A program made the position numbers and the translations under genes. The notes under the pieces were generated by a model. The model was given only the letters and a program-made list of their open reading frames with translations. It was not told the DNA's origin and ran no database searches. Below are positions 6,767 through 31,965 of a DNA stretch of 36,924 bases, piece after piece. The DNA comes from Ruminococcus sp. (GTDB lineage: Bacteria; Bacillota; Clostridia; Oscillospirales; Ruminococcaceae): the NCBI GenBank assembly GCA_017543335.1, contig JAFYGE010000089.1, positions 1 to 36,924 of the forward strand, in the 5' to 3' direction. Position 1 is the first letter of the stretch. Each line of letters starts with the position of its first letter.

Positions 6767-7155
6767 AAAAACCGGCGGAGCCGGCATTAAGGGATTCTCA
6801 AGGGTTCACAATCCTTGAGCGGGAAGGTGTGCGAGGTTACCCCTACCAGCGGTAGGGGATGTCAGCTTGCTGACAGGGGTGGCTGGACCCGATTAGGGTG
6901 GGCAGAGCCCTTCCTAAGAAGCAGTCCAGCGAGCAAGGCAACGCTGGACGGACGGCTCGCATCGCTCGCCCCAGCTTGACTGGCATAGTTACTTTCGTCG
7001 GTCAAGCCGAGGGAAGCGATGCGGAACGTCCGTAAAACTTCGCTTCGCTGGTTTTACTACTTCTCAGGGGGACGCTGTCCCCCTCGGTCACCTCCTGCCA
7101 AAGGGATAATAATCCCTTTGGAATCCCGTTATTGACCGGCTTCGCCGGCTTTTTA
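6767..7155. repeat. Modular hairpin repeat element, copy A
   Basis: This roughly 390 nt non-coding element lies between holB and ricT, starting (minus-strand sense) 16 nt after the holB stop. It begins and ends with short hairpins ACCGGC/GCCGGC around GGA or TTC. The left arm has a CTCAAGG stem, then CCCCTACC/GGTAGGGG and GTCAGC/GCTGAC hairpins, GGGC-AGA-GCCC, and GTCCAGCG/CGCTGGAC. The centre has CCAG-CTTGA-CTGG and TCGG-TCAAG-CCGA. The right arm has a GTAAAAC/GTTTTAC hairpin, GGGGGAC/GTCCCCC and CCAAAGGGAT/ATCCCTTTGG. Copies B-F share this architecture. The T-run outside each end suggests a terminator facing outward on each strand. Confidence 0.92.
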
Positions 7156-7170
7156 TTCTTTTTTTATTTT

Positions 7171-8151
7171 TTATATGTCAATTATATCACTGCACAGTGC
7201 GGCGAGTACTAACGGCAGACTAACATTGCTGTCAATAGCCCTCTTAGCCCTTTCAATGTGCATATGTATCCTTATAGCCTGATAAGCGGTCAAAGCCTCA
7301 GAGAGCCTTTTAGCGTGCTCTCTACAGCAGCCGATAGTCGCCGCATCAGGGTCCTTGCCAAGCACTGCCGCATCACGCACGAGCAGGTCGAGCATAGACA
7401 GTATTTCGATAGCGTCACGGCGTTCACGGCTGACAGGAAATATGACCGAATTCAGGTGATATTCGTCTTTATTTATTATACTATCTGCGAGCGATTTTGT
7501 CAAATCAACTTTATTTCTAAGTTCCTCGTCAGAGATATATTCAAGGCATCTGCCTATGTTACCGTGAAAACTGTCAACAGCCTTTCTGGAGTCGTCAGTT
7601 TCACAGCCGAAACAGCTCAGAGCTTCGAGAGCTTCATCATCGCTGCACTGAGCAACTCCGAAGCAGACGCAGCGTGAGATTATAGTCGGCAGAAAAGCGG
7701 ACTTCGACTGAGCTGTAAAAATAAAATAAGCATAATCCGGCGGCTCCTCTATCAGTTTGAGGAGCTTATTCTGCGGACGTGGATCGAAATTATCGCAGTC
7801 TCCGAAGATATAGACTTTTACACCGCTGCTGTTGTTCGGCATGACATAAGCGTCACGAGCGACATCAGAGATAGTCTCGACAGAAAATCCGCCGAGTTTA
7901 CCTGATTTATGGACTATTGAAACGTCCGGATGCCTGTCCTCGTCGATAGAGCGGCAGGTCTCGCAGACACCGCAAGGCTTGTCCCCGGACTTATTTCCGC
8001 ACATCAGCAATTTTGTATAATATTTAGCAATAGTTTTTCTGCCGCAGCCTTTTTCACCGTAAAGTATCAGCGAATGGGCAGTTCTTCCGGTCCCGGACAT
8101 AGCTTCGAGCGTCGAGACCAGCTGTTCGTTGCCAAAAACTTTATTATTCAT
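7171..8151 (-). CDS. holB: DNA polymerase III subunit delta'
   Basis: This encodes a 326-residue clamp-loader subunit of the AAA+ family. Residues 1-190 hold the ATPase-like fold: a P-loop variant GEKGCGRKT, a four-cysteine zinc-binding module with CGNKSGDKPCGVCETC, and the conserved LLKLIEEPP segment before the FIFTA strand. The C-terminal half is the helical collar part. The frame is open upstream to 8220, but that would overlap the decarboxylase gene. The ATG at 8151 (MNNKVFGNEQL) lies 14 nt after the decarboxylase stop, has GGGTGA upstream and gives the family's usual beginning. It is probably co-transcribed with the decarboxylase. The tmk gene that often sits between them is absent. Confidence 0.92.
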   Translation of the reverse strand: MNNKVFGNEQLVSTLEAMSGTGRTAHSLILYGEKGCGRKTIAKYYTKLLMCGNKSGDKPCGVCETCRSIDEDRHPDVSIVHKSGKLGGFSVETISDVARDAYVMPNNSSGVKVYIFGDCDNFDPRPQNKLLKLIEEPPDYAYFIFTAQSKSAFLPTIISRCVCFGVAQCSDDEALEALSCFGCETDDSRKAVDSFHGNIGRCLEYISDEELRNKVDLTKSLADSIINKDEYHLNSVIFPVSRERRDAIEILSMLDLLVRDAAVLGKDPDAATIGCCREHAKRLSEALTAYQAIRIHMHIERAKRAIDSNVSLPLVLAALCSDIIDI

Positions 8152-8165
8152 AAGATTCACCCATT

Positions 8166-9494
8166 TTATTTTACCACATTTACAGTCCGGATGCCATACC
8201 TTTTGAAAATATTTATGCAATTTTGGTCGATAATTTCACCGCTTGCGGCGATAGGGACTGCCGGCGGACACGGAAGTCTGACAGCTCCGCAGATCCTACC
8301 CTCGGAGTTTTCAACATCTATGTCCTCAGATGTTGAAAAAACAGCCTCACGTATCGACATAGCACGTTTGGGGAGCGTCAGCGAGAAATCGTCCTTTACC
8401 GGTGCGGAGCGTCCGAGCGTTTTCAGAGCGGCTGAAACGGCGTGATACAGCCTTTTGTAGTCCTCAGAGCGATAGATCGGCGACATGAGAAGTACTACAA
8501 GACTGCTGTCGGAGTACTCGCACTCAACACCGTTCTCACGAAGTGCCTGAGCGAATTCCATGCCGTCATATCCGGATTCAGCGGCTTTGATAGTGATATG
8601 GAAGGGTTCTCCGTCAACAAAAGTCAGTTCAGTGTTGAAAAGTTCACGGAAGCGGCTGAGCTCAGCGAGATTACGATTTATGTCCTCACGGATATGCTCC
8701 GAGATGTACTTGTTGCACAGGTCGAGCGAAGCCATTACGAGATATGACGGACTTGTGCCTGCAAAAAGGCTCATGGCGGACTTTAGCTGCGAAGCGTACT
8801 CCGGACGTGAAGTGTGCAGCATAGCAGCTCCGGTGAGGGCAGGAAGCATCTTGTGAGCAGAATCACAGCACATATCCGCACCGAGTGCGATAGGGTGGAG
8901 ATTCTCCGGCATGAAAGCAAGGTGAGCACCGTGAGCGTTGTCGACTATCAGCCTTGCATCGTACTTGCGGCAAAGGTCACTAATAGCCGGAATATCAGCT
9001 AAAGCACCGGTGTAGTCCGGAGAAGTGAGGTAAATGCAGGCAGGAGCGTCGCTTTTTTGCAGGTGAGCTTCGAGGTCGGCGAGGTCAGCTTTACCGGAGA
9101 GAAGTCCGGCAGTATACTCCGGCACAGACCACTCCACATCGAGGTCGAGGAGTGCGGCAGTATTTAAGAACGACCTATGAACGTTGCGGACTGCAATGAC
9201 ACGCCTTTGCTCCATTTTCATGATTGTGAGCATAGCTTGTATGCATAAAGTCGAGCCGGTTGCGGAATAGACAGTGGCGGCGGTATTATAGAGTGCGGAC
9301 ATATTTTTTTCGCTTTCAGCGATGATGCCGTCCGCTTCAAAGAGGCTGTCCGCACCGGAAATTTCGGTGATGTCGTAGTGGTAGAGCGGAGCGAGGTCGG
9401 CATATTGGGGGATGCCTTTATGTCCGGGGGTATGGGTACGGAGGGTACCGGCGGAATTATAGTTGTTAATAAAATCAAAAATTGGAGTATTCAT
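8166..9494 (-). CDS. Orn/Lys/Arg decarboxylase-family PLP enzyme
   Basis: This encodes a 442-residue fold-type I pyridoxal-phosphate enzyme of the Orn/Lys/Arg decarboxylase family, the type found next to tmk-holB in Firmicutes (YaaO-like). The substrate, probably arginine or lysine, cannot be assigned from sequence. Visible features are TPGHKG near residue 22, the ATGSTLCIQA cofactor-phosphate loop near 77, the VDNAHGAH aspartate segment near 188, and the Schiff-base lysine in CDSAHKMLPALTGAA near 213. The C-terminal segment near 395-425 resembles the family's small domain. Its product would be a polyamine precursor. holB follows 14 nt downstream. The gene starts only 22 nt from repeat element B, leaving no room for a promoter outside the element. 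Confidence 0.88.
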   Translation of the reverse strand: MNTPIFDFINNYNSAGTLRTHTPGHKGIPQYADLAPLYHYDITEISGADSLFEADGIIAESEKNMSALYNTAATVYSATGSTLCIQAMLTIMKMEQRRVIAVRNVHRSFLNTAALLDLDVEWSVPEYTAGLLSGKADLADLEAHLQKSDAPACIYLTSPDYTGALADIPAISDLCRKYDARLIVDNAHGAHLAFMPENLHPIALGADMCCDSAHKMLPALTGAAMLHTSRPEYASQLKSAMSLFAGTSPSYLVMASLDLCNKYISEHIREDINRNLAELSRFRELFNTELTFVDGEPFHITIKAAESGYDGMEFAQALRENGVECEYSDSSLVVLLMSPIYRSEDYKRLYHAVSAALKTLGRSAPVKDDFSLTLPKRAMSIREAVFSTSEDIDVENSEGRICGAVRLPCPPAVPIAASGEIIDQNCINIFKRYGIRTVNVVK

Positions 9495-9516
9495 AAAAAA
9501 CCTTTCAAAAATAATT

Positions 9517-9750
9517 AAAAACCGACGAAGTCGGGCAATAACGGGATTCCAAAGGGATTATTATCCCTTTGGCAAGGGGGTGTGCGAGGGGGAACAGAGT
9601 TCCCCCTAAAGAGTAGTCCAGCGAGCAAAGCAACGCTGGACGGACGGCTCGTAGCACTTCCCCCAGCTTGACTGGCGTAATAAATAAAGGCGAACCATAT
9701 TATAAGTTCGCCTTTTTTGTCGGTCAAGCCGGCAGCGTCACGCTGCTTTT
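9517..9750. repeat. Modular hairpin repeat element, copy B (hybrid right end)
   Basis: This roughly 235 nt copy lies between the decarboxylase start and the stop of the large membrane protein. The left arm is complete: terminal ACCGAC-GAA-GTCGG, CCAAAGGGAT/ATCCCTTTGG, GGGGGAAC-AGA-GTTCCCCC, GTCCAGCG/CGCTGGAC and CCAG-CTTGA-CTGG. The centre carries a terminator-like hairpin (AAAGGCGAAC at 9686-9695 with GTTCGCCTTT at 9706-9715), then GTCGGTCAAGCC. There the right arm stops and is replaced by the tip hairpin of the second repeat family, GCAGCG-TCA-CGCTGC (9732-9746), followed by six T's. Confidence 0.9.
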
Positions 9751-11715
9751 TTAATAATAGATTATATTATGGTCAAATACAAGCACCTTGTACTCAGTAT
9801 TGTTTACAAATACCGACTTAGTCTCCATAGCTTCGTTAAGAAGCGGACTCTGAATGTCCATAAGTGTCTGGTATTCATAAGGATTTGTCAGCAGGAAGTA
9901 ATCCTCCTGATCTTCCTGATCCTTGTACCAATTCTCAGAGGACTGGTAGATTCTCTTAGAAACACCGTTCTGGTCGATATTAACGTCACGTACCTTAACG
10001 TTTGAATCGGAAAGGAGAGTGATAGCGTTAGCGTTCCAGAAAGTAGCATAACCGTAGGAAAGTCCCTCATCTTCGAGGAATTCTGTCAGACCGTAGAGGT
10101 TATTCTCGGTATAGCCGTCCTTAGGCATCTTCTTGATCTCTTTCATGTTGAGGTAGCTTACCATTACCATTGGAATAGCAAGTATAGCGACTATTCTTGA
10201 AGCGTTGGTCTTGTTAGCGATAGCCCAGTGGATGAAGAGAATAGAGATTATAAGTGATGTGCCGATAGCCGGAGTAAGTCTCCAGTCAGCAGCAGCGATA
10301 ACGCCGACGATATATCCAAGAAGGTTGATTCCGAATGCTGCCCAGTGCATCCATATTGCAATGCGGAGCATCTTTGCGTCCTTTGACTTCTTGAACTTAG
10401 GATAGAAGAAAGTAGCGATTATCGGCATTACGAGGAGTATCATAGCAGAAGCGATGTAGATGAGGTTAGTAACGCCCTCCTTTTCGTTAAGAGGAACACC
10501 GCCCATATCCTTAACACCGTTGAGCTTTATCCAAGCGAGTGGGAATGAGTGGTAGTGTTCAGTCCAGTCGCCCATTGGAGAGAAGTTTGAGTTTGCCTGA
10601 GCGTAGCCTGCAACGAGGTCACCGACCCATTTTTCGTTGAGCTTTCCGCCGAGGATTATCATAAGTCCGAAAAGACCGACTGAAACTACAGTGATAAGGC
10701 TCTTTTTGCTGATTATCTTGTTATTAGTATCAACGAAGTGCTCGATAAATATAGCTCCGACGAAAGGTGCAGCAAAGATAGAAAGTGCAGAGATACCGTC
10801 TGTAGCGGTGAACATGATGAACACAAGGAGTATCACGAAAGCTATCAGTATCCGCAGGAAATTGATTTTCGCCTTATTGCTTGCAGTACCCAGTTTCCGC
10901 TGACGCTCTGCAAGATTCATGATCCTGAAATATAGGAATAGTCCTATGACGATGAACAGGATTCCCAGCGAGTAGTAGATAGTGTGCTGCCAGAAGATCT
11001 CACGCATTTTCTGTGACGAGGTAGTCATGGCGAGCATACCGGAAGCTCCGAGGCAGATAGCACGGATGTCCCAGTGCATTTCGCTGAGCATGAGGCAGAA
11101 GAAACCTGTGAGGAGTATGAAGTAGGTCATCATACCCCAGATGTGAGCCTTCATGGAAAGTCCGAACCAGTGTATGAACAGCTGCATCGGCACGTTGATT
11201 CCGAATGGCAGGAAGCAGGCATATCCGAAGTCCTTATCGTAGACCGCATCGCCCTCTATAGAGGCATTTGCCCACATGATAGTGTCTGTACAGTCAGCGT
11301 GGAACTCTTTCTTGTAAGCGACTGTTATGTAGTAGACCATAAGAGCCACAACTGCGATGAATATTGCTAACGGGATAAGATACGAGAGCACCTTTACACC
11401 TTTTTTACCGTAATTGTTCCAGAACAGGAGCAGTTTCTCCTTAGGAGTGAGCTCCGGAACAACGGCAGCTTCACCAGAAGCATCGGGAAGAGCGTCACCG
11501 GAAACTTCAGGTTCACCGGAAATGCTCTCAATGATATTTTCGGCAGCCTCAGGAGCGGACTCAGCGGCAGTTTCAATGGTATCTGCGGCTGTATCAGCTA
11601 TATCTCCGGCTGCTGTTTCAACAGTTTCAACAGCTTCATTTGCTGGATCTTTTGCTGCTTTTACAGCTTTCTCAGCTTTTGAGGAGCTGTTCTTGGACTT
11701 TTTGTTTTCAGCCAT
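9751..11715 (-). CDS. Large polytopic membrane protein, probable GT-C-like glycosyltransferase
   Basis: This encodes a 654-residue membrane protein. Residues 1-95 are a disordered, Ala/Glu/Thr-rich cytoplasmic head. About 11-12 hydrophobic helices follow from residue 105 to about 530 (for example IPLAIFIAVVALMVYYITVA, then YFILLTGFFCLMLSE and ILRILIAFVILLVFIMF-like segments). A soluble tail of roughly 120 residues ends in VFVNNTEYKVLVFDHNIIYY. The first extracytoplasmic loop contains acidic residues (ADCTDTIMWANASIEGDAVYD), as in lipid-linked GT-C sugar transferases, but I see no decisive motif. Downstream of a GtrA-family gene and an FAD oxidoreductase, it plausibly finishes a surface-glycan modification set. 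The function is inferred from topology and context only. Confidence 0.6.
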   Translation of the reverse strand: MAENKKSKNSSSKAEKAVKAAKDPANEAVETVETAAGDIADTAADTIETAAESAPEAAENIIESISGEPEVSGDALPDASGEAAVVPELTPKEKLLLFWNNYGKKGVKVLSYLIPLAIFIAVVALMVYYITVAYKKEFHADCTDTIMWANASIEGDAVYDKDFGYACFLPFGINVPMQLFIHWFGLSMKAHIWGMMTYFILLTGFFCLMLSEMHWDIRAICLGASGMLAMTTSSQKMREIFWQHTIYYSLGILFIVIGLFLYFRIMNLAERQRKLGTASNKAKINFLRILIAFVILLVFIMFTATDGISALSIFAAPFVGAIFIEHFVDTNNKIISKKSLITVVSVGLFGLMIILGGKLNEKWVGDLVAGYAQANSNFSPMGDWTEHYHSFPLAWIKLNGVKDMGGVPLNEKEGVTNLIYIASAMILLVMPIIATFFYPKFKKSKDAKMLRIAIWMHWAAFGINLLGYIVGVIAAADWRLTPAIGTSLIISILFIHWAIANKTNASRIVAILAIPMVMVSYLNMKEIKKMPKDGYTENNLYGLTEFLEDEGLSYGYATFWNANAITLLSDSNVKVRDVNIDQNGVSKRIYQSSENWYKDQEDQEDYFLLTNPYEYQTLMDIQSPLLNEAMETKSVFVNNTEYKVLVFDHNIIYY

Positions 11716-11756
11716 TGTATCACCTCTAATAATTATTTTTTAATATACATATTTTA

Positions 11757-11785: not shown

Positions 11786-11800
11786 TCGTCTGTCGAGCCG

Positions 11801-12032
11801 GCAGGGATGAGATCCCTGCACCCGTATCACGCTTTGCTCGTAAGCTCGCTTACTCTCTGCGAAACCTTTTACTTTGCTTTCTCATACATACAGATGTAAT
11901 ACGCAGCGGTAATTTAAAATGATAATATTACCAGATAAGTAATTACTTGTGTATGCGAAAGGAGATGTCCCGATTCGCACAGAGTAACGAGCTTGCGAGT
12001 GAGAACGTGAAAAGGGTGCAGCGTCACGCTGC
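11801..12032. repeat. Second-family inverted repeat, longest copy
   Basis: This fills most of the 336 nt gap between the GtrA-family gene and the large membrane protein gene. The left tip is the hairpin GCAGGGAT-GAG-ATCCCTGC (11801-11819) followed by CACCC, and the right tip is GCAGCG-TCA-CGCTGC (12018-12032) preceded by GGGT. Between them are matching inverted arms: left CACG..GCTCGTAAGCTCGCTTACTC, right the inverse of GAGTAACGAGCTTGCGAGTG..CGTG. An AT-rich middle includes GGTAATTT and TAATATTACC. The tips differ in stem sequence but are equivalent in position. Related copies are at 21898 and 27825. Confidence 0.8.
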
Positions 12033-15185: not shown

Positions 15186-15484
15186 AAAAACCGACGAAGT
15201 AATTATGCCAGTCAAGCTGGGGCGAGTGCTGCGAGCCATCCGTCCAGCGTAGCTTTGCTCGCTGGACTACTCTTTAGGGGAGGCTCTGCACCCTAATCGG
15301 GTCCAGCCACCCCTGTCAGCAAGCTGACATCCCCTACCACTGGTAGGGGTAACCCCTCGTACACCTCTCCGCCAAAGGGATAATAGGCTAACCGCCCCGT
15401 CCCCTCTGTCACTTCGTGACATCTCCCCACACTGTGGGGCGTCACCCTTTGGAATCCCGTTATTGACCGGCTTCGCCGGCTTTT
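15186..15484. repeat. Modular hairpin repeat element, copy C (truncated left arm, nested insertion)
   Basis: This lies between the DUF6291 start and the YhfC stop. The left end starts with AAAAACCGACGAAGT and then jumps directly to the core (GCCAGTCAAGCTGGGG). The right arm has the GTCCAGCG-type hairpin, AGGGG, the GTCAGC/GCTGAC and CCCCTACC/GGTAGGGG hairpins and the terminal ACCGGC-TTC-GCCGG with T-run. The CCAAAGGG/CCCTTTGG hairpin (near 15374-15381 and 15445-15452) has its loop filled by a further module with GTCAC-TTC-GTGAC and CCCCAC/GTGGGG hairpins. Confidence 0.9.
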
Positions 15485-15487
15485 CCT

Positions 15488-16129
15488 TTATTCTTTTTCT
15501 ATTTTTATCCAGCATTTGTATGCCGCAAAGCAAATACCTGCGGTCATCAGTGTATTGAACGTTATGACTATAAAGCCGCTGAAACCAAATATCCCCGTGA
15601 ACGTATTGCTGACGGTGTGCAGCATTATCGCCAATGGCAGCATCACCTGCGATTTATTAGTCCGTATGCCATAGAATATAAGCACTGTCAGTCCCACCAC
15701 AAAGGCAGTCCCCTCGGCAGCTGCCCATAGGTTTATCCAGAAAATATTCGGGTCAGCTCTGCCGGTGCCTATCAGCCAAAGACACGACATCCCTGCACCA
15801 AATTCCTCAAATGCTCCGTGACCTATGCCGTAGGTGACTGCGTCTTTAGCGTCAGTATAGGACGTGAGATAGTACTTCAGCACCAGAAATTTCGCAGTTT
15901 CTTCCAGTATCCCATAGAGCAGTCCCTGCTGTAGATAGTAGGAGTAAAAGTCGCTGTGACTGAATCCCGAACGCACTACTGCTCCCACAATAAACACCGG
16001 AAAACACGCTATAAAGGCTATTATCGCAGGTAACCGGCGAGCTCCGGTCTTGTTGTGCCATATCTGGACAAGTATCAGCGGACTTAACAGTCTTGTAAGT
16101 CCGGCAAGCAGACAGCTGATATTGGTCAT
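15488..16129 (-). CDS. YhfC-family intramembrane metalloprotease
   Basis: This encodes a 213-residue protein with about six hydrophobic helices. It carries the expected metal-site motifs of the YhfC/PrsW-type superfamily: GILEETAKFLVLKY near residue 73 (paired glutamates), YGIGHGAFEEFGAG near 100 (histidine and glutamates) and MLHTVSNTF near 175 (histidine and asparagine). Members are predicted membrane-embedded proteases; substrates are mostly unknown. AAAGGAG lies before the ATG and the PNPOx-family gene ends only 14 nt upstream, so both should be transcribed from the promoter at 16642. Repeat element C begins three bases after the stop codon. Confidence 0.85.
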   Translation of the reverse strand: MTNISCLLAGLTRLLSPLILVQIWHNKTGARRLPAIIAFIACFPVFIVGAVVRSGFSHSDFYSYYLQQGLLYGILEETAKFLVLKYYLTSYTDAKDAVTYGIGHGAFEEFGAGMSCLWLIGTGRADPNIFWINLWAAAEGTAFVVGLTVLIFYGIRTNKSQVMLPLAIMLHTVSNTFTGIFGFSGFIVITFNTLMTAGICFAAYKCWIKIEKE

Positions 16130-18852: not shown

Positions 18853-18860
18853 TAAAAATA

Positions 18861-19250
18861 AAACCGGCGAAGCCGGTCAATAAGGGATTCTCAAGGGTTC
18901 TCAACCCTTGAGCGGGAAGGTGTGCGAGGTTACCCCTACCAGCGGTAGGGGATGTCAGCTTGCTGACAGGGGTGGCTGGACCCGATTAGGGTGGGCAGAG
19001 CCCTTCCTAAGAAATAGTAAAACAAGCGTAGCGATGTTTTACGGAACGTCCGCATCGCTTCCCTCGGCTTGACCGACGCAGTAATTATGCCAGTCAAGCT
19101 GGGGCGAGTGCTGCGAGCCGTCCGTCCAGCGTTGCTACGCTTGCTGGACTGCTTTTTAGGGGAGGCTCTGCCTCCCCTCGTACACCCTACCGCCAGAGAG
19201 AGAACCTCTCTCTGGACTCTCATTAAGCCGACTTCGTCGGATTATATTTT
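18861..19250. repeat. Modular hairpin repeat element, copy D (core reversed relative to A)
   Basis: This roughly 390 nt element lies between the sigma-like gene and the response-regulator promoter. The left arm has ACCGGC-GAA-GCCGGT, CTCAAGGGTT/AACCCTTGAG, CCCCTACC/GGTAGGGG, GTCAGC/GCTGAC, GGGC-AGA-GCCC and a GTAAAAC/GTTTTAC hairpin. The centre reads TCGG-CTTGA-CCGA then GCCAGTCAAGCTGG, the reverse order of copy A. The right arm has GTCCAGCG-type, GGGGAGGC/GCCTCCCC, CCAGAGAGAG/CTCTCTCTGG and GCCGAC-TTC-GTCGG hairpins. It probably terminates the sigma-like transcript. Confidence 0.92.
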
Positions 19251-20077: not shown

Positions 20078-20162
20078 TTTTATAAAGTATTGCCGGAACT
20101 TTGATTCAATTGTTTGAGCGGCGATACTTGTCTTGAAATTATTAATGGCAATGCTAAAAATG

Positions 20163-21907: not shown

Positions 21908-22006
21908 CATCCCTGCACCCGTCTCACGTTCCCACTCGCTGACCATTACTCTGTACGAGTAGGAAAGTCTGAGCTCACATACGCAGGCAAGTGCGTATCT
22001 GGTAAT
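21898..22006. repeat. Second-family repeat, copy overlapping the kinase stop codon
   Basis: The tip hairpin GCAGGGAT-GAC-ATCCCTGC (21898-21916) contains the kinase stop codon (21905-21907). It is followed by CACCCGTCTCACG, an arm ACTCGCTGACCATTACTCTG, and ATACGCA...TGCGTATCTGGTAATA, which parallel the arms of the copy at 11801. The remaining bases to the htrA start hold a TTACGC...TTATAT pair that could be a weak promoter, but I am not sure. Confidence 0.72.
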
Positions 22007-22092
22007 ATTTTTTAATTACTGTTACGCATTTATACAAACAGTATTATATTGCTGGTTTTTGTTTCATTTTTTATTTATTATAAGGAGATATT

Positions 22093-23718: not shown

Positions 23719-24471
23719 ATGAAAAAATTTATCATTACAGCAATTACTTTGCTGGTCGCAGCCGGCGTAATTACCGGCACTATCATATTCAAGTCGAAAT
23801 ATGTCAGAATAAACGGGACTATCCACAAGAGGAGTGTAGATAAACTTGATCTTGTCAAAGTTCAGAAAAAGGGATTCAAGATAAGTGAGCTTAATAAGTG
23901 CTCCGAGCTTGAATATCTTAGTACGCAAGAACTAAATGATGATGTCTTGGAGGATATGGGCAGTTTTGATAAGCTGGAGTGTTTCGCTAATTATGGAGCC
24001 AATATAAAAAATAGTGCATCAGAGCTGAATAAATACGGAAAGCTGGATGTTATTCTGTTCCAATTTTCAGAGGTCGACCTTAAAGGAATAAAGAATAACG
24101 CTGTAAGAATAATCTTTTTGTTCGACAGCAAAGTCAAAAATATTTCCGAGCTGAAGAACTGTGATTCACTTGAAAGTATTTCACTTGCAAGTTCAAGCGT
24201 CGCTGACATTATTGATTATAATGAAGCTGATAAAAGACTGACAATGAAAGACAGCTCTGCCTTTGCTGAATTAGACAACGTTAAAAGCCTTAGTATTAAT
24301 GATGCTTATATTGAGGATATTTCCGGAATCAATGATATGGAGAGCCTTGAAGAGTTTACGGCTACTCAGGGCATGATAGACGATGATATGGTCAAGGAGC
24401 TTGAAGATAAGGGAGTTAAGGTCACATTGTCAGAACCGAGGTTTTTTTCTGATAAAGGAAGCGAGAAATGA
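23719..24471 (+). CDS. Membrane-anchored LRR-like protein, paralog 1 of 4
   Basis: This encodes a 250-residue protein with an N-terminal hydrophobic anchor or signal (KKFIITAITLLVAAGVITGTIIF), then about 200 residues of irregular leucine-rich repeats of 20-24 residues: ISELNKCSELEYLS, LEDMGSFDKLECFA, ISELKNCDSLESISLASSSV. It is the most diverged of four tandem paralogs. All share the core blocks 'VDLKG', 'LKDSS(V/A)FA' and 'EDISG' near the C-terminus. The start follows AAAAGGGG. Its stop overlaps the next start by four bases (ATGA). No catalytic motif is seen; a role in binding a surface or extracellular partner is likely but unproven. Confidence 0.82.
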   Translation: MKKFIITAITLLVAAGVITGTIIFKSKYVRINGTIHKRSVDKLDLVKVQKKGFKISELNKCSELEYLSTQELNDDVLEDMGSFDKLECFANYGANIKNSASELNKYGKLDVILFQFSEVDLKGIKNNAVRIIFLFDSKVKNISELKNCDSLESISLASSSVADIIDYNEADKRLTMKDSSAFAELDNVKSLSINDAYIEDISGINDMESLEEFTATQGMIDDDMVKELEDKGVKVTLSEPRFFSDKGSEK

Positions 24472-25196
24472 AAGCAAAAGTCAAAAAAGCGGTTTCGATA
24501 GTGCTCATAGCCGCCGTGACAGCATTTGTATGGATTTTTTTATATAGTCTTTCTAACCATGTTTCTATAGGCGGTGAAAGCTACTCAAAGAAAAGCACAT
24601 GGCTGAATATTGATGCTAACGAAAAGGACTTCACTGTTAAGAAGCTGAATAAATTCACTAAGCTCGAACATCTGACTATCGACCATATCAATGATGAGAT
24701 GCTTGGTGAGTTCGGTGAATTTGATAACCTTAAAGAGCTGTATATTTATTATTCTAAATTCTCCAGTTCTTTGTCAAAGCTGGGGGAATACCAAAAACTT
24801 GGTGTAATAGCCTTTCATCGCTCGACTATTGATTTGAAAAATTTCAATAGTACTGCGGAATATCTGTTTTTCGACGAATGTAAGCTCACGAATATAGCTG
24901 CACTGACAGAGTGTTCTTCTTTGCTCAGTATGGAATTTGAATCTACATCTGTTGACGATTATATAGTACCGATAAAGGAAGGCAATAACGAAACAAAATA
25001 TGCTCTGAAAGACAGCTCGGTGTTTGAAGGATTCAACAGTGTAAAAGTACTCGACTTTGAAAACATTCAGATAGAGGATATTGCTGGTATACTGAAAATG
25101 AAAGAGCTTAAAGTGCTCAAAGTCTCAGAGGACAATATCTCAGCTGAATTTATCACACAGCTGAAAGGAAATGGTATAGAAGTTAAATTTTTATAG
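24468..25196 (+). CDS. Membrane-anchored LRR-like protein, paralog 2 of 4
   Basis: This encodes a 242-residue paralog with a hydrophobic N-terminal segment (AVSIVLIAAVTAFVWIFLYSL) and outward LRR-like repeats. Shared blocks include DFTVKKLNKFTKLEHLTI, MLGEFGEFDNLKELYI, VDDYIVPI, ALKDSSVFEGFNSVK and IEDIAGILKMKELK. It overlaps paralog 1 by four bases, so the two are translationally coupled. Relative to paralogs 3 and 4 it has insertions near the 'YIVP' block. Function is unknown. Confidence 0.82.
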   Translation: MKAKVKKAVSIVLIAAVTAFVWIFLYSLSNHVSIGGESYSKKSTWLNIDANEKDFTVKKLNKFTKLEHLTIDHINDEMLGEFGEFDNLKELYIYYSKFSSSLSKLGEYQKLGVIAFHRSTIDLKNFNSTAEYLFFDECKLTNIAALTECSSLLSMEFESTSVDDYIVPIKEGNNETKYALKDSSVFEGFNSVKVLDFENIQIEDIAGILKMKELKVLKVSEDNISAEFITQLKGNGIEVKFL

Positions 25197-25210
25197 AAAA
25201 GGGGATTCTT

Positions 25211-25927
25211 ATGAATAAAAGATTTATAACTTTAATTGTAATTATTGCCGCTGTCGTTGGCTTTAATATTTATCGCAGAATGGATAAAGTAAAATTGGAC
25301 GGAAGATACTACCCAAAGGATTCTAAGGGACTGAATATTAATGCCAACAGCAAGGACTTTTCTACCGAAAAGCTAAACAAATTCACTGAGCTTGAAAGAC
25401 TTAGTATTTCAAAAGTGAGCGATGGTATACTCGAAGATTTCGGGGATTTTAAGGAGCTTTCCTCAATTACTTTCTTTTATGCTAAGCTGAATAGCTCTGC
25501 CAAAAAGCTCAATTCATATGAGAAGCTTGAAGATGTTTCGTTCTTTAATTCTAATGTTGACCTGCAAGGAGTCTATATCAGTGAGCTTAAAGATATAGTT
25601 TTTGATAAATGCGATGTGAAAAATTTTTCTGCACTGAAAGAATGTGCAAAGCTTGACCATATACAGCTCTCAGGAACAACCGTGGACAGCTATATAGTCC
25701 ATGAAAATCATGAATACGTGCTAAAGGACAGCTCTGTATTTGCAGATCTCGACACAGTTACGAATATCAATCTTGAACATATAGTGCTTGAAGATATATC
25801 CGGAATTCTTGAAATGGATGCTCTTAAAACTGTTGTAGTCGGTATTGGTGAAGTGCCGGACGAAACGGTCGATAAGCTAACTTCACATGGAATAGAAGTC
25901 TGGTCCGTTGCTGTAAGAACAGATTGA
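25211..25927 (+). CDS. Membrane-anchored LRR-like protein, paralog 3 of 4
   Basis: This encodes a 238-residue paralog with a short N-terminal hydrophobic segment (FITLIVIIAAVVGFNIY) followed by LRR-like repeats. It is closest to paralog 4: both contain SKDFSTEKLNKFTELE-like starts, ILEDFGDFKELS, KLNSYEKLE, SALKECAKLD, YVLKDSSVFADLDTV and LEDISGILEMDAL. Codons and DNA are also similar over these stretches, pointing to recent duplication. It starts 14 nt after paralog 2 with AAAAGGGG as ribosome site. Confidence 0.83.
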   Translation: MNKRFITLIVIIAAVVGFNIYRRMDKVKLDGRYYPKDSKGLNINANSKDFSTEKLNKFTELERLSISKVSDGILEDFGDFKELSSITFFYAKLNSSAKKLNSYEKLEDVSFFNSNVDLQGVYISELKDIVFDKCDVKNFSALKECAKLDHIQLSGTTVDSYIVHENHEYVLKDSSVFADLDTVTNINLEHIVLEDISGILEMDALKTVVVGIGEVPDETVDKLTSHGIEVWSVAVRTD

Positions 25928-26004
25928 AAATACGATGCAACTAAAGTCCTGAAACATAATGTGTTAAAAGTTACGATAAAAAATTCCCAACGAAAGGAAG
26001 AATC

Positions 26005-26706
26005 ATGAAAAAAATTATCATATCAGCCATACTTTTAGCAGCAGCAAGTATCGGTGCTGTTTACTTCAAATCAACTCACATTTATATGAATAAAAACTTC
26101 TATTCAAAGGATGAAAAGGAAATGTGGGTGTTTGTTGATGACAAGGATTTTTCGACAAAAAAGCTCAATCAATTCACAGAGCTTGAAACGCTTAATGTTG
26201 AAAATGTGAATGATGATATATTCGAGGATTTTGGAGATTTTAAGGAGCTTAGTCATATTTTTTTCATTAATTCTGAGTTGTATACGTCTACAACAAAGCT
26301 CAATTCATATGAGAAGCTTGAATATGCTCAATTCGATGATTCTGAGGTCGACCTGAAAGGAGTCTGCCTTCCGAATCTGACAGATATATCTTTTCAAAAC
26401 TGTAATGTATATAATATTTCTGCATTGAAAGAATGTGCAAAACTGGACAAGATTTCGCTTGAAAAAACGCTTGTATATGATTCAATATTCCGTGTCGATA
26501 ATAAATATGTAATCAAAGACAGCTCTGTATTTGCAGATTTTGATACAGTAGTGAATCTCGATCTGGATAATATTGTGGTCGAAGATATATCTGGTTTTCT
26601 TGAAATGGATGCTCTGAGATCTATTGGAGGACTTAGGAAAAATAGTCTGTCTGATGAACAAGCTGCGGAGCTGGAAGCTCATGGAATAAAAGTTTATTAC
26701 CGGTAA
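26005..26706 (+). CDS. Membrane-anchored LRR-like protein, paralog 4 of 4
   Basis: This encodes a 233-residue last member of the array, with a hydrophobic N-terminus (KKIIISAILLAAASIGAVYF) and the same LRR-like blocks as paralog 3 (IFEDFGDFKELSHIF, KLNSYEKLEYAQF, VDLKGV, SALKECAKLDKISL, IKDSSVFADFDTV, VEDISGFLEMDAL). The most variable positions lie between these blocks, on the predicted strand faces. It is separated from paralog 3 by 77 nt with no clear promoter and ends before a bidirectional terminator. Confidence 0.83.
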   Translation: MKKIIISAILLAAASIGAVYFKSTHIYMNKNFYSKDEKEMWVFVDDKDFSTKKLNQFTELETLNVENVNDDIFEDFGDFKELSHIFFINSELYTSTTKLNSYEKLEYAQFDDSEVDLKGVCLPNLTDISFQNCNVYNISALKECAKLDKISLEKTLVYDSIFRVDNKYVIKDSSVFADFDTVVNLDLDNIVVEDISGFLEMDALRSIGGLRKNSLSDEQAAELEAHGIKVYYR

Positions 26707-26737
26707 GAAGCTGAGAAATACTATTGAATATCCAGAT

Positions 26738-26785: not shown

Positions 26786-26805
26786 TTCATTTTAAGAATG
26801 GACAG

Positions 26806-27231: not shown

Positions 27232-27385
27232 AAGTCATACCTCCAATAAATTTGTATTTTTATTTTATGCGATTACTTTTGATATATACACCGTTCCATT
27301 GGTATCATCCCTTTCGTTTCATTATCTATATAATAGTCCTGTTTTATGAAAGAAATATCAAAGGTATGTGACGGTATTATGAAAA

Positions 27386-27412
27386 TTAGCACTCTCGGTG
27401 TGAGAGTGCTAA
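27386..27412. promoter_or_regulatory. CIRCE operator of hsp20
   Basis: TTAGCACTC-N9-GAGTGCTAA is perfect in both arms, the binding site for the heat-shock repressor HrcA. It sits far from the hsp20 start (155 nt) and only 21 nt from repeat element E. I could not find a confident promoter next to it. Confidence 0.95.
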
Positions 27413-27432
27413 ACAGTAGTTAATTAAATAAT

Positions 27433-27793
27433 AAAAACCGGCGTAGCCGGCAGAAAAGGGATTCCAAAGGGTTCCCAACCCTTTGGCGGAGAGGTGTGCG
27501 AGGGGAGGCAGAGCCTCCCCTAAAGAGTAGTAAAACCAGCGGAGCGAGGTTTTACGGACCGTCCGCATTGCTTGCCTTGGCTTGACCGACAAAAAAGGCG
27601 AACCATACTACAGGTTCGCCTTTAATTATTACGCCAGTCAAGCTGGGGGAAGTGCTGCGAGCCGTCCGTCCAGCGTTGCTACGCTCGCTGGACTGCTTCT
27701 TAGGAAGGGCTCTGCCCTTCCTCGCACACCTTCCTGCCAAAGGGTTGGAAACCCTTTGGAATCTCGTGATTGCCCGACTTCGTCGATTTTTTT
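27433..27793. repeat. Modular hairpin repeat element, copy E
   Basis: This roughly 360 nt copy lies between the hsp20 CIRCE site and the end of groEL. The left arm has ACCGGC-GTA-GCCGGC, CCAAAGGGTT/AACCCTTTGG, GGGGAGGC-AGA-GCCTCCCC and AAAACC/GGTTTT hairpins, then TCGG..CCGA-type core. The centre has a terminator-like hairpin (AAAGGCGAACC at 27594-27604, GGTTCGCCTTT at 27613-27623). The right arm has GCCAGTCAAGCTGG, GTCCAGCG-type, GGGC-TCT-GCCC, CCAAAGGGTT/AACCCTTTGG and a CCGAC-TTC-GTCG end with T-run. Confidence 0.92.
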
Positions 27794-27824
27794 ATTTGTA
27801 TTTTATTACCGCACCGGACTTACT

Positions 27825-27908
27825 TCCGTATGCGAAAGCAGACTTTCCGCCTCGCAGAGAGTAAGCGAGTTTACGAGCGAAGCGTGAAAGGGTGCAGCGT
27901 CACGCTGC
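27825..27908. repeat. Second-family repeat, copy abutting the groEL stop
   Basis: TATGCGAAAG, then CGCAGAGAGTAAGCGAGTTTACGAGCG, CGTGAAAGGGT and the tip GCAGCG-TCA-CGCTGC (27894-27908) closely match the right half of the copy at 11801. The tip hairpin ends at the base before the groEL stop codon (27909-27911, minus strand). Confidence 0.82.
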
Positions 27909-29841
<1,933 letters not shown>

Positions 29842-29866
29842 CTAAAAATAAATAGCAAATCATTGA

Positions 29867-29893
29867 TTAGCACTCTCTTTCTTTGAGTGCTAA
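29867..29893. promoter_or_regulatory. CIRCE operator of groESL
   Basis: TTAGCACTC-N9-GAGTGCTAA is perfect in both arms and lies directly after the groES promoter on the minus strand, the standard HrcA repressor arrangement. Confidence 0.97.
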
Positions 29894-29897
29894 TTAT

Positions 29898-29925
29898 ATT
29901 TTACCACCTTTTTATAATAAATCAA
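29898..29925 (-). promoter_or_regulatory. Predicted promoter of groESL
   Basis: On the minus strand TTGATT (29920-29925) and TAAAAT (29898-29903) are 16 nt apart, placing the start inside the CIRCE site. Confidence 0.65.
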
Positions 29926-30034
29926 GGGTTTTCAGGAAGGTTTCACAAATTTTGGAAATTTGCACAGTTTTTTCAACAGACTGTTAGTTTGGGTGAAGCA
30001 AAATAAATCCCGGAAAGACCTTATCATTATTATT

Positions 30035-30062
30035 ACCGTTTTTTCGGGTACTGCATATAATA
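30035..30062 (+). promoter_or_regulatory. Possible sigma-K-like promoter of dpaAB
   Basis: CATATAATA (30054-30062) fits the sigma-K -10 form CATANNNTA, with ACC 16 nt upstream. The same bases contain TATAAT, so a housekeeping promoter with a poor -35 cannot be ruled out. In Bacillus the orthologous genes are read by sigma-K in the mother cell. Confidence 0.4.
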
Positions 30063-30103
30063 TATAAAACTCAATAAAAATCAAATCAAGAAAGGCAGAA
30101 TAT

Positions 30104-30952
30104 ATGACTGATAAAAGAATACTTATTGCCGGCGGCGATATGCGTCAGATATACTGTGCAGAGCGGCTTTCGGCAAAATACGATATTACACTTGCAGGCT
30201 GGGACAAAGAACTTGTTCCCGATGGACTTGGTATCGTCCCTTACGGTGAGTATGACTGCTTGCTTCTTCCGGTACCTCCGCTTGCTGAAAACGGGAGCAT
30301 CTCAACACCGTGTTTCAGCGGCACACTTGTACCTGACGAGCTGAAAGGACTGCTTGCTCCGGAAGCAGTTATCCTCGCCGGAAAGTACGACAAGCGGCTG
30401 AGCAGTTATTTTCCGGATAACGCTGTTGTGGACTATATGGAGCGTGAGGAGCTTAGTCTGAATAACGCAGTCCCGACCGCTGAGGGAGCTGTTCAGATAG
30501 CACTTGAAGAACTTCCCGTGACACTAAGCGGCTCTAAGGTGCTGATAGCAGGAATGGGGCGTATCGGTACTGCTCTTGCAGAGATACTGAAAGGTTTCGG
30601 AACTGAGATTCACACGGCAGTAAGAAATCCGAACGGAGCTGCAAAGGCACGTATCCACGGCATAAAAGCGGTTACCGCAAATACTATGGACAGCGATTAT
30701 ACTGTAGTATTCAACACTGTTCCCGATATGATATTCACTCGTGAGCGGCTGAGCAGGATGAGTACGGCAACTCTGTTCATTGACCTTGCTTCAAAACCCG
30801 GCGGCATCGACTTTAATTCAGCGGCTGAGCTCGGCATAAAAACTATCTGGGCACTCGGACTTCCCGGCAGGACAGCTCCGGTAACAGCAGGTGAAATGAT
30901 AGCTGAGACAGTTGAACTCATAATCGCAGAAAGGAGTATCGAACATGACTGA
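30104..30952 (+). CDS. dpaA: Dipicolinate synthase subunit A
   Basis: This encodes a 282-residue DpaA (SpoVFA) protein. With DpaB it converts dihydrodipicolinate from the lysine pathway to dipicolinic acid, the spore-core solute. The N-terminal half has the family's AGGDMRQIYCAERL start. The C-terminal Rossmann domain has VLIAGMGRIGTALAEILKGFG at about 145-165, then NTVPDMIF and FIDLASKPGG, and ends near ALGLPGRTAPVTAGE, all typical. AAAGG precedes the ATG. It overlaps dpaB by eight bases. Its presence implies that the organism or a recent ancestor sporulates. Confidence 0.96.
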   Translation: MTDKRILIAGGDMRQIYCAERLSAKYDITLAGWDKELVPDGLGIVPYGEYDCLLLPVPPLAENGSISTPCFSGTLVPDELKGLLAPEAVILAGKYDKRLSSYFPDNAVVDYMEREELSLNNAVPTAEGAVQIALEELPVTLSGSKVLIAGMGRIGTALAEILKGFGTEIHTAVRNPNGAAKARIHGIKAVTANTMDSDYTVVFNTVPDMIFTRERLSRMSTATLFIDLASKPGGIDFNSAAELGIKTIWALGLPGRTAPVTAGEMIAETVELIIAERSIEHD

Positions 30953-31529
30953 TACACTTAATGGACTGCGTATCGGCTACGCTATGACAGGCTCTTTCTG
31001 TACATTTGAGAGAAGCTTTGAGCAGGCAGTTTGTCTGCGTGAAGCCGGAGCTGAGCTAATACCGATAATGTCGGAAAATGCCGCTTTGACCGATACAAGG
31101 TTCGGCAAAGGAGCTGAAAATCTCGCACGGCTCAGGTATATTGCCGGCAGGGATGTGATAACCGATATATCCGGAGCTGAACCCATTGGACCTAAGTCGA
31201 TGACCGACCTTATGATAATAGCTCCATGTACGTCAAATACAGCCGCAAAGCTCACAAACGGGGTTACAGACGGTGTTGTGACTATGGCAGTTAAGTCGCA
31301 TCTGCGGAGCGGAAAGCCGGTTTTGCTGGCGATAGCATCAAATGATTCACTGCTTGGTTCGGCGAAGAATATAGGGGAGCTTTTTAATCGGAAGAATTAT
31401 TATTTTGTACCGATGCGGCAGGATGATTGGGTAAAGAAGCCGACATCGCTTGTGGCGGAGTTTGAGAAAATACCGCAGGCGGCAATAGCGGCGATGAACG
31501 GAATACAGTTGAGACCAATAATAATATAA
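30945..31529 (+). CDS. dpaB: Dipicolinate synthase subunit B (flavoprotein-like)
   Basis: This encodes a 194-residue DpaB (SpoVFB), a flavoprotein-fold subunit partnered with DpaA. It carries GYAMTGSFCTFERSF near the N-terminus, the ISGAEPIGP segment, LMIIAPCTSNTAAKLTNGVTDG (a flavodecarboxylase-like site), and NYYFVPMRQDDWVKKPTSLVA near the C-terminus, all typical. AAAGGAG lies inside the end of dpaA, so translation is coupled. Repeat element F begins 13 nt after the stop codon and probably supplies the transcript end. Confidence 0.96.
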   Translation: MTDTLNGLRIGYAMTGSFCTFERSFEQAVCLREAGAELIPIMSENAALTDTRFGKGAENLARLRYIAGRDVITDISGAEPIGPKSMTDLMIIAPCTSNTAAKLTNGVTDGVVTMAVKSHLRSGKPVLLAIASNDSLLGSAKNIGELFNRKNYYFVPMRQDDWVKKPTSLVAEFEKIPQAAIAAMNGIQLRPIII

Positions 31530-31541
31530 AAAAGAAAAAAT

Positions 31542-31965
31542 AAAAAACCGACGAAGTCGGCATAATGAGAGTCCAGAGAGAGGTTCTCTCTCTGGCGGAG
31601 AGGTGTGCGAGGGGAGGCAGAGCCTCCCCTAAAAAGCAGTCCAGCGAGCGTAGCAACGCTGGACGGACGGCTCGCAGCACTTCCCCCAGCTTGACTGGCG
31701 TAATAATTAAAGGCGAACCATATTAGAGGTTCGCCTTTTTTTGTCGGTCAAGCCGAGGCAAGCAATGCGGACGGTCCGTAAAACCTCGCTTCGCTGGTTT
31801 TACTGCTCTTTAGGAAGGGCTCTGCCCACCCTAATCGGGTCCAGCCACCCCTGTCAGCAAGCTGACATCCCCTACCACTGGTAGGGGTAACCTCGCACAC
31901 CTTCCCGCTCAAGGGTTGGGAACCCTTTGGAATCCCGTTATTGACCGGCTTCGCCGGTTTTTTTA
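31542..31965. repeat. Modular hairpin repeat element, copy F (longest)
   Basis: This roughly 424 nt copy lies between converging dpaB and a membrane-protein gene. The left arm has ACCGAC-GAA-GTCGG, CCAGAGAGAG/CTCTCTCTGG, GGGGAGGC-AGA-GCCTCCCC, GTCCAGCG/CGCTGGAC and CCAG-CTTGA-CTGG hairpins. The centre has the AAAGGCGAACC/GGTTCGCCTTT terminator-like hairpin (31709-31738). The right arm has TCGG..CCGA, GTAAAACC/GGTTTTAC, GGGC-TCT-GCCC, GTCAGC/GCTGAC, CCCCTACC/GGTAGGGG, a mixed CTCAAGGGTT/AACCCTTTGG hairpin and ACCGGC-TTC-GCCGGT with T-run. It can terminate both converging transcripts. Confidence 0.93.

What the first reader, a model, noticed from the sequence alone, without database searches (positions are those of the whole stretch)
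6767..31965. Six-copy modular hairpin element whose stems covary between copies
The copies at 6767, 9517, 15186, 18861, 27433 and 31542 share an ordered set of hairpins. The loops and linkers (GAA/TTC, AGA/TCT, CTTGA, GGTGTGCGAGG) are conserved, but the stems change on both sides together. Examples: terminal CCGGC-GAA-GCCGG against CCGAC-GAA-GTCGG; second stem CCAAAGGG/CCCTTTGG, CTCAAGGG/CCCTTGAG or CCAGAGAGAG/CTCTCTCTGG; third GGGGAGGC/GCCTCCCC, GGGGGAAC/GTTCCCCC or GGGC/GCCC; core CCAG-CTTGA-CTGG against TCGG-CTTGA-CCGA. Paired changes of this kind show selection for base pairing in RNA or single-stranded DNA rather than for sequence or protein. Six copies in 37 kb predicts very many per genome. 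It could be a hairpin-array RNA, a non-autonomous mobile unit, or both. I vaguely recall GTCAC-TTC-GTGAC/CCCC hairpin repeats in Faecalibacterium-like genomes but cannot verify a link.
Basis: partly seen in the sequence, partly recalled or inferred. Interest (0 to 1): 0.88.

Follow-up and report, generated by a model that had tools for sequence, protein, structure and literature searches.

The report
Shuffling hairpin repeats in Ruminococcus genomes
A family of non-coding, hairpin-rich DNA repeats scattered between genes of gut and rumen Ruminococcus appears to swap whole hairpins and flip its middle, so the matched base changes in its stems look at least as much like DNA recombination as like a working RNA.

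Summary
The six copies are real. They belong to a non-coding intergenic repeat of Ruminococcus: about 41 places in this genome, strong matches in 16 of 119 genomes searched (own included), none in the 37 other genera sampled. The unit is a ~160-nt half-element of five hairpins ending in an almost invariant CTTGA-loop hairpin; full copies are two unlike halves facing each other. Pairing is strongly preserved (96.8% of cells; 23 of 36 pairs change on both sides). At the same sites in a ~90-95% identical relative, stems often differ as whole hairpins that other copies carry (57 of 155 comparisons changed in both arms, 13 in one), and type order is reversed in 5 of 10 full copies. Hairpins reassort almost freely in these two genomes; G-U pairs are scarce; the arms of one copy avoid matching near the centre. 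One copy lies in the holB-yaaT junction, element-free in 28 of 28 other Ruminococcus inspected. Best reading: a non-autonomous MITE/BIME/BOX-like repeat with terminator-like ends, kept palindromic and reshuffled by DNA-level recombination. An RNA role is not excluded. Main caveats: both genomes compared are metagenome assemblies, and no mobilising enzyme was found.

The parts
6767..7165 (.). Element E1: type 1 half (left) facing type 2 half (right), between holB and yaaT
   Evidence: cores at 6971-6983 and 6998-7010
6835..6900 (.). Optional ~63-nt two-hairpin module nested in hairpin H3 of E1; absent at the same site in G001
   Evidence: (I17)
5855..6721 (-). ricT/yaaT gene on one side of E1
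   Evidence: NF041131 RicT_YaaT, 304.9 bits
7171..8220 (-). holB-like gene (DNA polymerase III delta') on the other side of E1
   Evidence: PF13177 over cut-off; TIGR00678 134.5 bits, below its cut-off of 180.6
9517..9750 (.). Element E2: type 1 half, centre hairpin 9686-9715, then a type 2 core fused to a GCAGCGTCACGCTGC hairpin with T-run (remnant of a third arm type; longer in G001)
15186..15495 (.). Element E3: left half lost, type 1 half on the right; module 15289-15354 in H3 and a second nested module (~15386-15446) in H2. The G001 counterpart lacks the centre and cores
18857..19250 (.). Element E4: type 2 half facing type 1 half; module 18928-18993
27428..27797 (.). Element E5: type 2 half facing type 1 half, with centre hairpin; most of the left half absent at the same site in G001
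31535..31975 (.). Element E6: type 1 half facing type 2 half, filling the space between the stop codons of two convergent ORFs (31529 / 31974)
31548..31560 (.). E6 hairpin H1 (CCGAC-GAA-GTCGG), terminator-like on the minus strand
31573..31595 (.). E6 hairpin H2 (CCAGAGAGAG / CTCTCTCTGG)
31611..31629 (.). E6 hairpin H3 (GGGGAGGC-AGA-GCCTCCCC)
31639..31664 (.). E6 hairpin H4 (GTCCAGCG / CGCTGGAC)
31686..31698 (.). E6 core hairpin H6, type 1 (CCAG-CTTGA-CTGG)
31709..31738 (.). E6 centre hairpin (AAAGGCGAACC...GGTTCGCCTTT)
   Evidence: (D20)
31744..31756 (-). E6 core hairpin H6, type 2 (TCGG-CTTGA-CCGA)
31827..31892 (.). Optional module in H3 of the E6 right half
   Evidence: D18
31945..31957 (+). 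E6 outer hairpin of the right half followed by a T-run, terminator-like on the plus strand

Best explanation
A non-autonomous, non-coding interspersed DNA repeat of the genus Ruminococcus. Its unit is a ~160-nt half-element of five local hairpins (H1, H2, H3, H4, core H6). Many solo units lie between AT-rich imperfect inverted ends; full copies are two unlike halves head to head. Shown here: pairing is preserved in every hairpin; at the same sites in two close genomes whole hairpins differ, into alleles that other copies carry, and alleles are almost unassociated with each other; the interior occurs in both orientations; unlike arms are found in the centre; a copy entered an otherwise element-free gene junction in the window's lineage. 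Inferred: ectopic recombination or gene conversion between dispersed copies, and between the inverted arms of one copy, does the shuffling; hairpin-templated repair (template switching) and/or selection for perfect DNA palindromes keeps the stems matched, which would explain the scarcity of G-U pairs; copies with like arms are lost because long perfect palindromes are unstable (recalled knowledge); an unidentified transposase spread the unit; the outer hairpins with T-runs act as terminators in both directions, so copies are tolerated just behind stop codons.
For: Pairing. Whole-hairpin replacement: 31 half-elements at orthologous sites (flanks 89.5-98.9% identical, mostly 93-98%); of 155 hairpin comparisons 57 changed in both arms, 13 in one arm (6 of these are a module insertion), 77 identical, 8 not comparable. 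Of the 57, 42 are fully paired before and after, and 20 are H4 or H6 of the five flipped copies. G001 alleles also found in G000: H1 31, H2 34, H3 33, H4 33, H6 35 of 36 half-elements; in the set of other species 4, 33, 0, 4 and 23 of 36. Reassortment: no association among H1-H4 in G000 and one (H1-H4) in G001; 31 of 33 and 34 of 36 half-elements' worth of distinct combinations. Flipping: type order differs in 5 of 10 orthologous full copies; in pairs 14 and 30 the best match among 12 G000 interiors is the inverted ortholog. Unlike arms: same allele in both arms 0 of 13 (H3), 0 of 14 (H4), 0 of 14 (H6) in G000 against 4.9, 2.8, 6.3 by random pairing; H4 and H6 0 of 16 in G001 against 4.8, 7.7; H3 and H4 differ in 9 of 9 pairs read by eye from FD-1 and Firm_05. 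Insertion. Terminator-like ends: 8 of 10 H1-type ends in the window. G-U scarcity.
Against: No mobilising enzyme: no Y1 transposase in G000 (86% complete) and no longer element bounded by the inverted ends seen in the 8 genomes searched for them (read by eye). No clean target duplication could be read. Site sharing between G000 and G001 is high in the window region (6 of 6), so transposition is slow; elsewhere I fetched only element-bearing stretches, so sharing there cannot be judged. G000 and G001 are metagenome assemblies, where repeats can be misjoined; in FD-1, an isolate, the mosaic is present but 4 of 10 hairpin pairings are associated (p 0.004-0.010). Like arms are not significantly avoided in H3 of G001 (2 of 12, 3.2 expected) nor in H2 of either genome, and H1 is not avoided. 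H4 and H6 are linked in both genomes and H1-H6 weakly in G001 (p 0.034). With an automatically predicted structure the element's G-U share is 2.6% and one-sided changes 91 of 611; in the other-species set G-U is 3.8%: less extreme than 1.3%.
Confidence: 0.72

Rival explanations
1. A structured non-coding RNA (hairpin-array RNA or 3' UTR element) kept by selection on the transcript; copies spread with or without mobility and stems evolve by compensatory mutation.
For: Very strong covariation in two alignments; conserved unpaired CTTGA, GAA and GGTGTGCG; full copies lie behind at least one gene (none of 13 and none of 14 between divergent genes), so many are probably transcribed.
Against: G-U 1.3% (2.6% with predicted structure) of paired cells against 9.4% in RNase P of the genus; one-sided share of changes 38 of 502 (91 of 611) against 140 of 371. 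Whole-hairpin differences at orthologous sites. No fixed orientation, interior in either orientation, halves missing at orthologous sites. No Rfam family. Strong matches in only 16 of 119 genomes searched, weaker ones in 24 more.
Confidence: 0.14
2. The paired stem changes arise locally: during replication each hairpin templates its own repair (template switching), making new matched stems without exchange between copies.
For: Template switching is reported to make and repair matched stems and to invert spacers between inverted repeats (PMC8794818, abstract and opening of the text; PMC8604942, abstract); scarce G-U fits.
Against: It can copy one arm onto the other but does not by itself bring in a new arm: stems such as GGAAGGGC/GCCCTTCC against GGGGGAAC/GTTCCCCC differ at 4+4 positions, and the second is an allele present elsewhere in both genomes. 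It may still act alongside exchange.
Confidence: 0.08
3. The shuffling is an artefact: short-read metagenome assembly joined different copies inside the repeats.
For: G001 is a MAG by its record title and G000 is an unnamed, incomplete 95-contig assembly taken to be one; some contigs end inside elements (e.g. L049, L206, L209).
Against: E1 and pair 19 have identical interiors in both assemblies; FD-1, an isolate genome, also has many combinations of its hairpin alleles; covariation and the holB-yaaT insertion do not depend on it.
Confidence: 0.06

Closest known systems
BOX elements of Streptococcus pneumoniae (PMC3049150; abstract and passages seen)
   Same: Modular, non-coding, structured, intergenic, spread in the past but now moving slowly; lineage-restricted; there overrepresented between convergent genes.
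   Different: No sequence comparison was made. BOX has boxA, variable boxB and boxC modules; here there are five different hairpins per half, two unlike halves facing each other, and hairpin alleles reassort between copies.
REP / BIME / REPIN palindromes (PMC3733652 abstract and passages, PMC3116915 abstract)
   Same: Palindromic units in opposite orientation, mosaic composition, behind genes; REPINs are inverted doublets.
   Different: Half-unit ~160 nt with five hairpins rather than a 20-40 bp palindrome; no Y1/RAYT transposase in G000; G-U pairs scarce, whereas the frequency of GT pairing in stems is used there as support for RNA function.
TIR-type bacterial MITEs such as ERIC and Correia elements (recalled; named in PMC3049150 passages)
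   Same: Short, non-coding, inverted ends, intergenic, structured.
   Different: Inverted ends here are AT-rich and imperfect and clear only on solo copies; no target duplication established.
Template-switch maintenance of hairpins (PMC8794818, abstract and opening; PMC8604942, abstract)
   Same: Matched multi-base stem changes and inversion of the spacer between inverted repeats.
   Different: Those abstracts describe local templates within a gene; here alleles are shared and reassorted among dozens of dispersed copies.

Membership tests
REP/BIME/REPIN with RAYT (Y1 transposase) | Y1/RAYT transposase in the genome | tested here: not met
   PF01797: 0 matches in G000 (86% complete); one doubtful match in G001 (23.6 bits inside a 4124-aa frame); 6 in FD-1 and 1 in RGIG5027.
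REP/BIME/REPIN with RAYT (Y1 transposase) | 20-40 bp palindrome with unpaired GTAG or CGTC tag | tested here: not met
   Unit is ~160 nt with five hairpins; the four bases ending at the first base of H4 are GTAG in 42, GCAG in 33 and others in 8 of 83, not a fixed tag.
REP/BIME/REPIN with RAYT (Y1 transposase) | Units in opposite orientation, behind genes | tested here: met
   14 and 16 head-to-head pairs; full copies not between divergent genes, 0 of 13 and 0 of 14.
BOX-like modular repeat | Mosaic of modules in variable number | tested here: met
   Optional modules, missing halves, third arm type.
BOX-like modular repeat | Sequence relationship to boxA/B/C | not tested
   No BOX sequence was compared.
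TIR-type MITE | Terminal inverted repeats | tested here: inconclusive
   Many solo copies share imperfect inverted AT-rich ends; most full copies show only A-rich/T-rich ends plus H1.
TIR-type MITE | Target-site duplication | tested here: inconclusive
   Empty holB-yaaT junctions come from distant relatives and the ends are A/T rich.
TIR-type MITE | Insertion into an otherwise empty site | tested here: met
   holB-yaaT: 28 of 28 other genomes inspected have a 15-107 nt junction without the element.
TIR-type MITE | Autonomous partner with the same ends | tested here: not met
   No pair of inverted ends enclosing a transposase gene seen in 8 genomes (by eye).
Functional structured RNA | Covarying base pairs | tested here: met
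Functional structured RNA | G-U pairs tolerated as in an RNA of the genus | tested here: not met
   1.3% (2.6% with predicted structure) against 9.4% in RNase P; 3.8% in other species. Not a formal test.
Functional structured RNA | Stable transcript or phenotype | not testable with these tools
   No RNA-seq available.
Functional structured RNA | Match to a described RNA family | tested here: not met
   Rfam 15: 0 at gathering score; one 18.7-bit match at E 4.2.

The most novel reading that the evidence does not exclude
A genome carries a freely recombining 'population' of hairpin alleles: dozens of dispersed elements exchange single hairpins of about 13-27 nt as intact cassettes and flip their centres, by a dedicated single-stranded or cruciform-DNA process that reads the near-invariant CTTGA core and linkers. 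Covariation then measures DNA exchange, not RNA function.
Probability: 0.25. Interest if true: 0.85.

Novelty: new variant of a known kind. Interest (0 to 1): 0.62.

Why it matters
Paired changes in stems are commonly taken as the best evidence for a functional RNA. Here is a repeat with overwhelming covariation in which hairpins at the same site differ as whole units that other copies carry, G-U intermediates are rare and the interior lies in either orientation. It is a natural test case for telling RNA selection from DNA-level hairpin exchange, and a warning for covariation-based discovery of RNA genes in repeats. It also offers strain markers and movable terminator-like elements in rumen and gut Ruminococcus, and shows unlike arms in the two genomes compared and in the pairs examined from FD-1 and Firm_05, as expected if long perfect palindromes are purged.

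Tried and rejected
Rfam: nothing above cut-off. Coding role: a few ORFs of about 95-111 aa overlap elements; read as chance frames, not pursued. Y1/RAYT mobilisation: none in G000. Autonomous element with the same inverted ends: none seen. H1 as a general terminator of the genome: of 22 exact CCGRCGAAGYCGG sites 19 are at half-element ends, 2 beside third-arm pieces on C42, 1 alone (C44:43106). Phage or plasmid carriage: no similar DNA in the plasmid or phage collections; 6 short exact motif matches in viral contigs, not examined; the nested module's pattern had none. Promoter in the solo half (TTGAC core plus a -10 at 17 nt): 7 of 16 and 7 of 23 solo-type ends in G000 and G001, 0 of 26 in other species (there 8 of 26 at 15 nt): not enough. 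Long arm-to-arm cruciform as the selected structure: it is the predicted minimum-energy fold of E6, but arms avoid matching in the centre, so local hairpins are the better unit. Clean presence/absence between G000 and G001: one G001 half-element (C51:15573) is absent in the window near 20110 but the site is not clean; a second site (C49:15655) has bare inverted ends in G000 and the full solo in G001, read as loss between CGACG repeats, though gain is possible. My first alignment seed used only 5 halves because the H1 pattern was too strict; it was replaced by the 83-row alignment, from which one 110-nt half (L042:8451-8560) and one hit longer than 190 nt (L207) were left out; halves interrupted by modules were not used there. 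The first RNase P alignment mixed strands and was discarded; one search reoriented the sequences. Orthologous pair 33 looked rearranged but one search shows matching outer flanks with the left half replaced by a third-arm array; it is kept (without it 52 of 150 comparisons change in both arms). Literature: searches; none listed a paper on such a repeat in Ruminococcus, but most subscription journals are not held.


Full report
Observation. Repeats found mechanically show the larger plan: a full copy is an inverted pair. One half ends in CCAG-CTTGA-CTGG (type 1), the other in TCGG-CTTGA-CCGA (type 2), and in the four window copies with both halves there is one of each (one type 2 core there reads TTGG-CTTGA-CCGA). 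Copy 9517 has a truncated second half and copy 15186 has lost one half.

Family. The whole assembly G000 (2.45 Mb, 95 contigs, 86% complete) has 108 overlapping matches to copy 31542, about 41 places after merging in the fetched stretches: 14 head-to-head pairs, 23 with one core, 4 fragments. Of the 41, 21 are on three contigs (C77, C23, C56) that hold 5% of the bases. A covariance model matched 40 of 119 genomes at E 1e-4 or better, all in the window's genus (1 of 38 genera sampled), 16 of them at 1e-20 or better, the window's own included; at most 24 candidates were scored per genome, so counts are lower bounds, and the weakest matches may be other hairpin repeats.

Anatomy. A half-element reads: A-rich stretch, H1 (5 bp, loop GAA), H2 (8-10 bp), a GGTGTGCGAGG-like linker, H3 (8-9 bp, loop AGA), a CCTAA-rich linker, H4 (7-8 bp plus a 2-bp cap), a variable linker, and the core H6 (4 bp, loop CTTGA). 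Many solo half-elements lie between AT-rich imperfect inverted ends. Other variants: a ~63-nt module nested in H3, another nested in H2, a centre hairpin, and a third kind of arm sharing only H1 and the core. Smaller derivatives exist: inverted ends with only the core (L314) and bare inverted ends (L172); at the L172 site the relative G001 has the full solo.

Pairing. On 83 contiguous half-elements 96.8% of 2982 cells are standard pairs, 23 of 36 pairs change on both sides, 464 cells do so (149 in shuffles), and structures slid by 1-3 columns reach 33-49%. In 53 half-elements (52 distinct) from genomes other than G000 and G001, three of them already in the first set, the values are 96.6%, 23 of 36 and 312 against 105 (fitted to the model). 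G-U pairs are 38 of 2888 paired cells (1.3%). In 30 RNase P RNAs of the same genus, with the structure predicted from their alignment, they are 302 of 3204 (9.4%), and changes on one side only are 140 of 371, against 38 of 502 in the element. With the same automatic prediction the element gives 2.6% and 91 of 611. In the 53 others G-U is 69 of 1810 (3.8%). A G-U pair on one strand is an A-C mismatch on the other, so the scarcity points to palindromes kept at the level of DNA or of both strands; the comparison uses different structures and divergences and is not a formal test.

What happens at one site. G001 (Ruminococcus sp. RGIG2886; the same genome as handle G004, by its coordinates) is collinear with the window at about 90-95% identity. 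All six window sites hold an element in both genomes, though E3 of G001 lacks the centre and cores, E5 lacks most of one half and E2 has a longer third-type arm. Over all fetched places, 23 sites could be paired and 31 half-elements compared hairpin by hairpin: H3 changed in both arms in 18, in one arm in 5, same in 4, not comparable in 4; H4 17, 1, 12, 1; H2 8, 3, 19, 1; H1 3, 3, 23, 2; H6 11, 1, 19, 0. Of the 57 two-arm changes 42 are fully paired before and after, and 20 are H4 or H6 of the five flipped copies; 6 of the 13 one-arm cases are module insertions. Most alleles are already carried by other copies of both genomes; H2 alleles are also shared with other species (33 of 36), H3 alleles are not (0 of 36). 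H1-H4 alleles are not associated with each other across copies in G000, and in G001 only H1 with H4; H4 and H6 are linked in both, as expected from the two types, and H1 with H6 weakly in G001 (p 0.034). With 33 and 36 half-elements and several alleles each, weak association could be missed. In 5 of 10 full copies the type order is reversed while outer hairpins mostly stay; in two of these the inverted ortholog is the best of 12 G000 interiors, in one nearly so, and in two another copy matches better. So both flipping in place and replacement from elsewhere seem to occur. At one site (pair 33) a half has been replaced by a third-arm array.

Unlike arms. The two arms of one copy share an H3, H4 or H6 allele in 0 of 13, 0 of 14 and 0 of 14 cases in G000 (P 0.002, 0.034, 0.0006), and H4 or H6 in 0 of 16 in G001 (P 0.0012, 0.0002); random pairing predicts 4.9, 2.8, 6.3 and 4.8, 7.7. 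H3 in G001 is 2 of 12 (3.2 expected), H2 is 3 of 14 in each (not significant), and H1 is not avoided (5 of 13, 8 of 12). Long perfect palindromes are known to be unstable in bacteria (recalled), which would produce this; short-read assembly may also miss like-armed copies, but FD-1 is an isolate.

Insertion. E1 lies between a holB-like gene and yaaT/ricT. Of 75 genomes searched 70 matched the region; the 28 other Ruminococcus loci returned as best matches all have the two genes 15-107 nt apart with no element, and ten of these 28 genomes carry strong matches elsewhere. G000 and G001 have 453 and 392 nt. The element therefore most likely entered in their lineage. Of the ten H1-type ends in the window, 8 score as terminator-like in the outward direction (the scan finds about twice as many such sites as in shuffles). 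The yaaT-side end of E1 is not on the scan's list, but by eye it is the H1 hairpin followed by a T-rich stretch, so the copy should reduce transcription into yaaT unless a promoter lies beyond it; this is a prediction only. Full copies lie behind at least one gene (none of 13 and none of 14 between divergent genes, with a simple ORF finder); in G000, 12 of 15 distances to a stop codon are within 25 nt.

Reading. The best account is a slow-moving, non-autonomous repeat whose copies recombine with one another. Shown: pairing, whole-hairpin differences at fixed sites, near-absence of association, both orientations, unlike arms, one insertion. Inferred: the recombination pathway, palindrome purging, terminator function and the missing mobilising enzyme. 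A functional RNA is possible but nothing here requires it.

Comparison. It works like BOX, BIME/REPIN and MITE repeats but fails or does not settle their defining tests: no RAYT in G000, no GTAG/CGTC-tagged short palindrome, no established target duplication. Template switching may help keep stems matched but does not by itself supply new alleles. I file it as a new variant of a known kind.

Noticed in passing
window 15386-15446; L046, L086, L123, L129, L322: A nested two-hairpin module (CCCCACAGTGTGGGG, GTCAC-TTC-GTGAC type) sits in H2 of some half-elements in several Ruminococcus genomes; similar stretches occur in 3 unannotated human-faecal phage records (84-89% identity).
   Followed up: partly
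L052 6270-6530; window 9719-9747; window 27826-27912: A third arm type: a longer, different hairpin array (GCATACG.../CGTATGC...) that shares only H1 and the core hairpin with the other two, at some sites reduced to a single terminator-like hairpin.
   Followed up: partly
window 27386-27412: A TTAGCACTC-N9-GAGTGCTAA inverted repeat (looks like CIRCE, recalled) beside element E5, upstream of an HSP20 gene; in G001 most of the left half of E5 is missing and the rest nearly abuts it.
   Followed up: no
G000 contigs C77, C23, C56: Elements are strongly clustered: 21 of 41 places on 5% of the assembly; collinear contigs of G001 (e.g. C51, C47, C52) are also rich. Cause unknown.
   Followed up: no
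window 11924-11987 and 21946-22009: Another inverted repeat pair, 64 nt, 73% complementary, between distant places in the window; the region of the first one also matches several places in G001.
   Followed up: no
L279-L282 (G043, Firm_05): Type 1 core is CCGG-CTTGA-CCGG there instead of CCAG-CTTGA-CTGG, still paired with a type 2 core in 4 of 4 head-to-head pairs examined.
   Followed up: yes
window 24245-26629 and 34511-35891: Diverged direct repeats between neighbouring ORFs (about 720-790 and 1238 nt spacing), suggesting tandem gene duplication.
   Followed up: no
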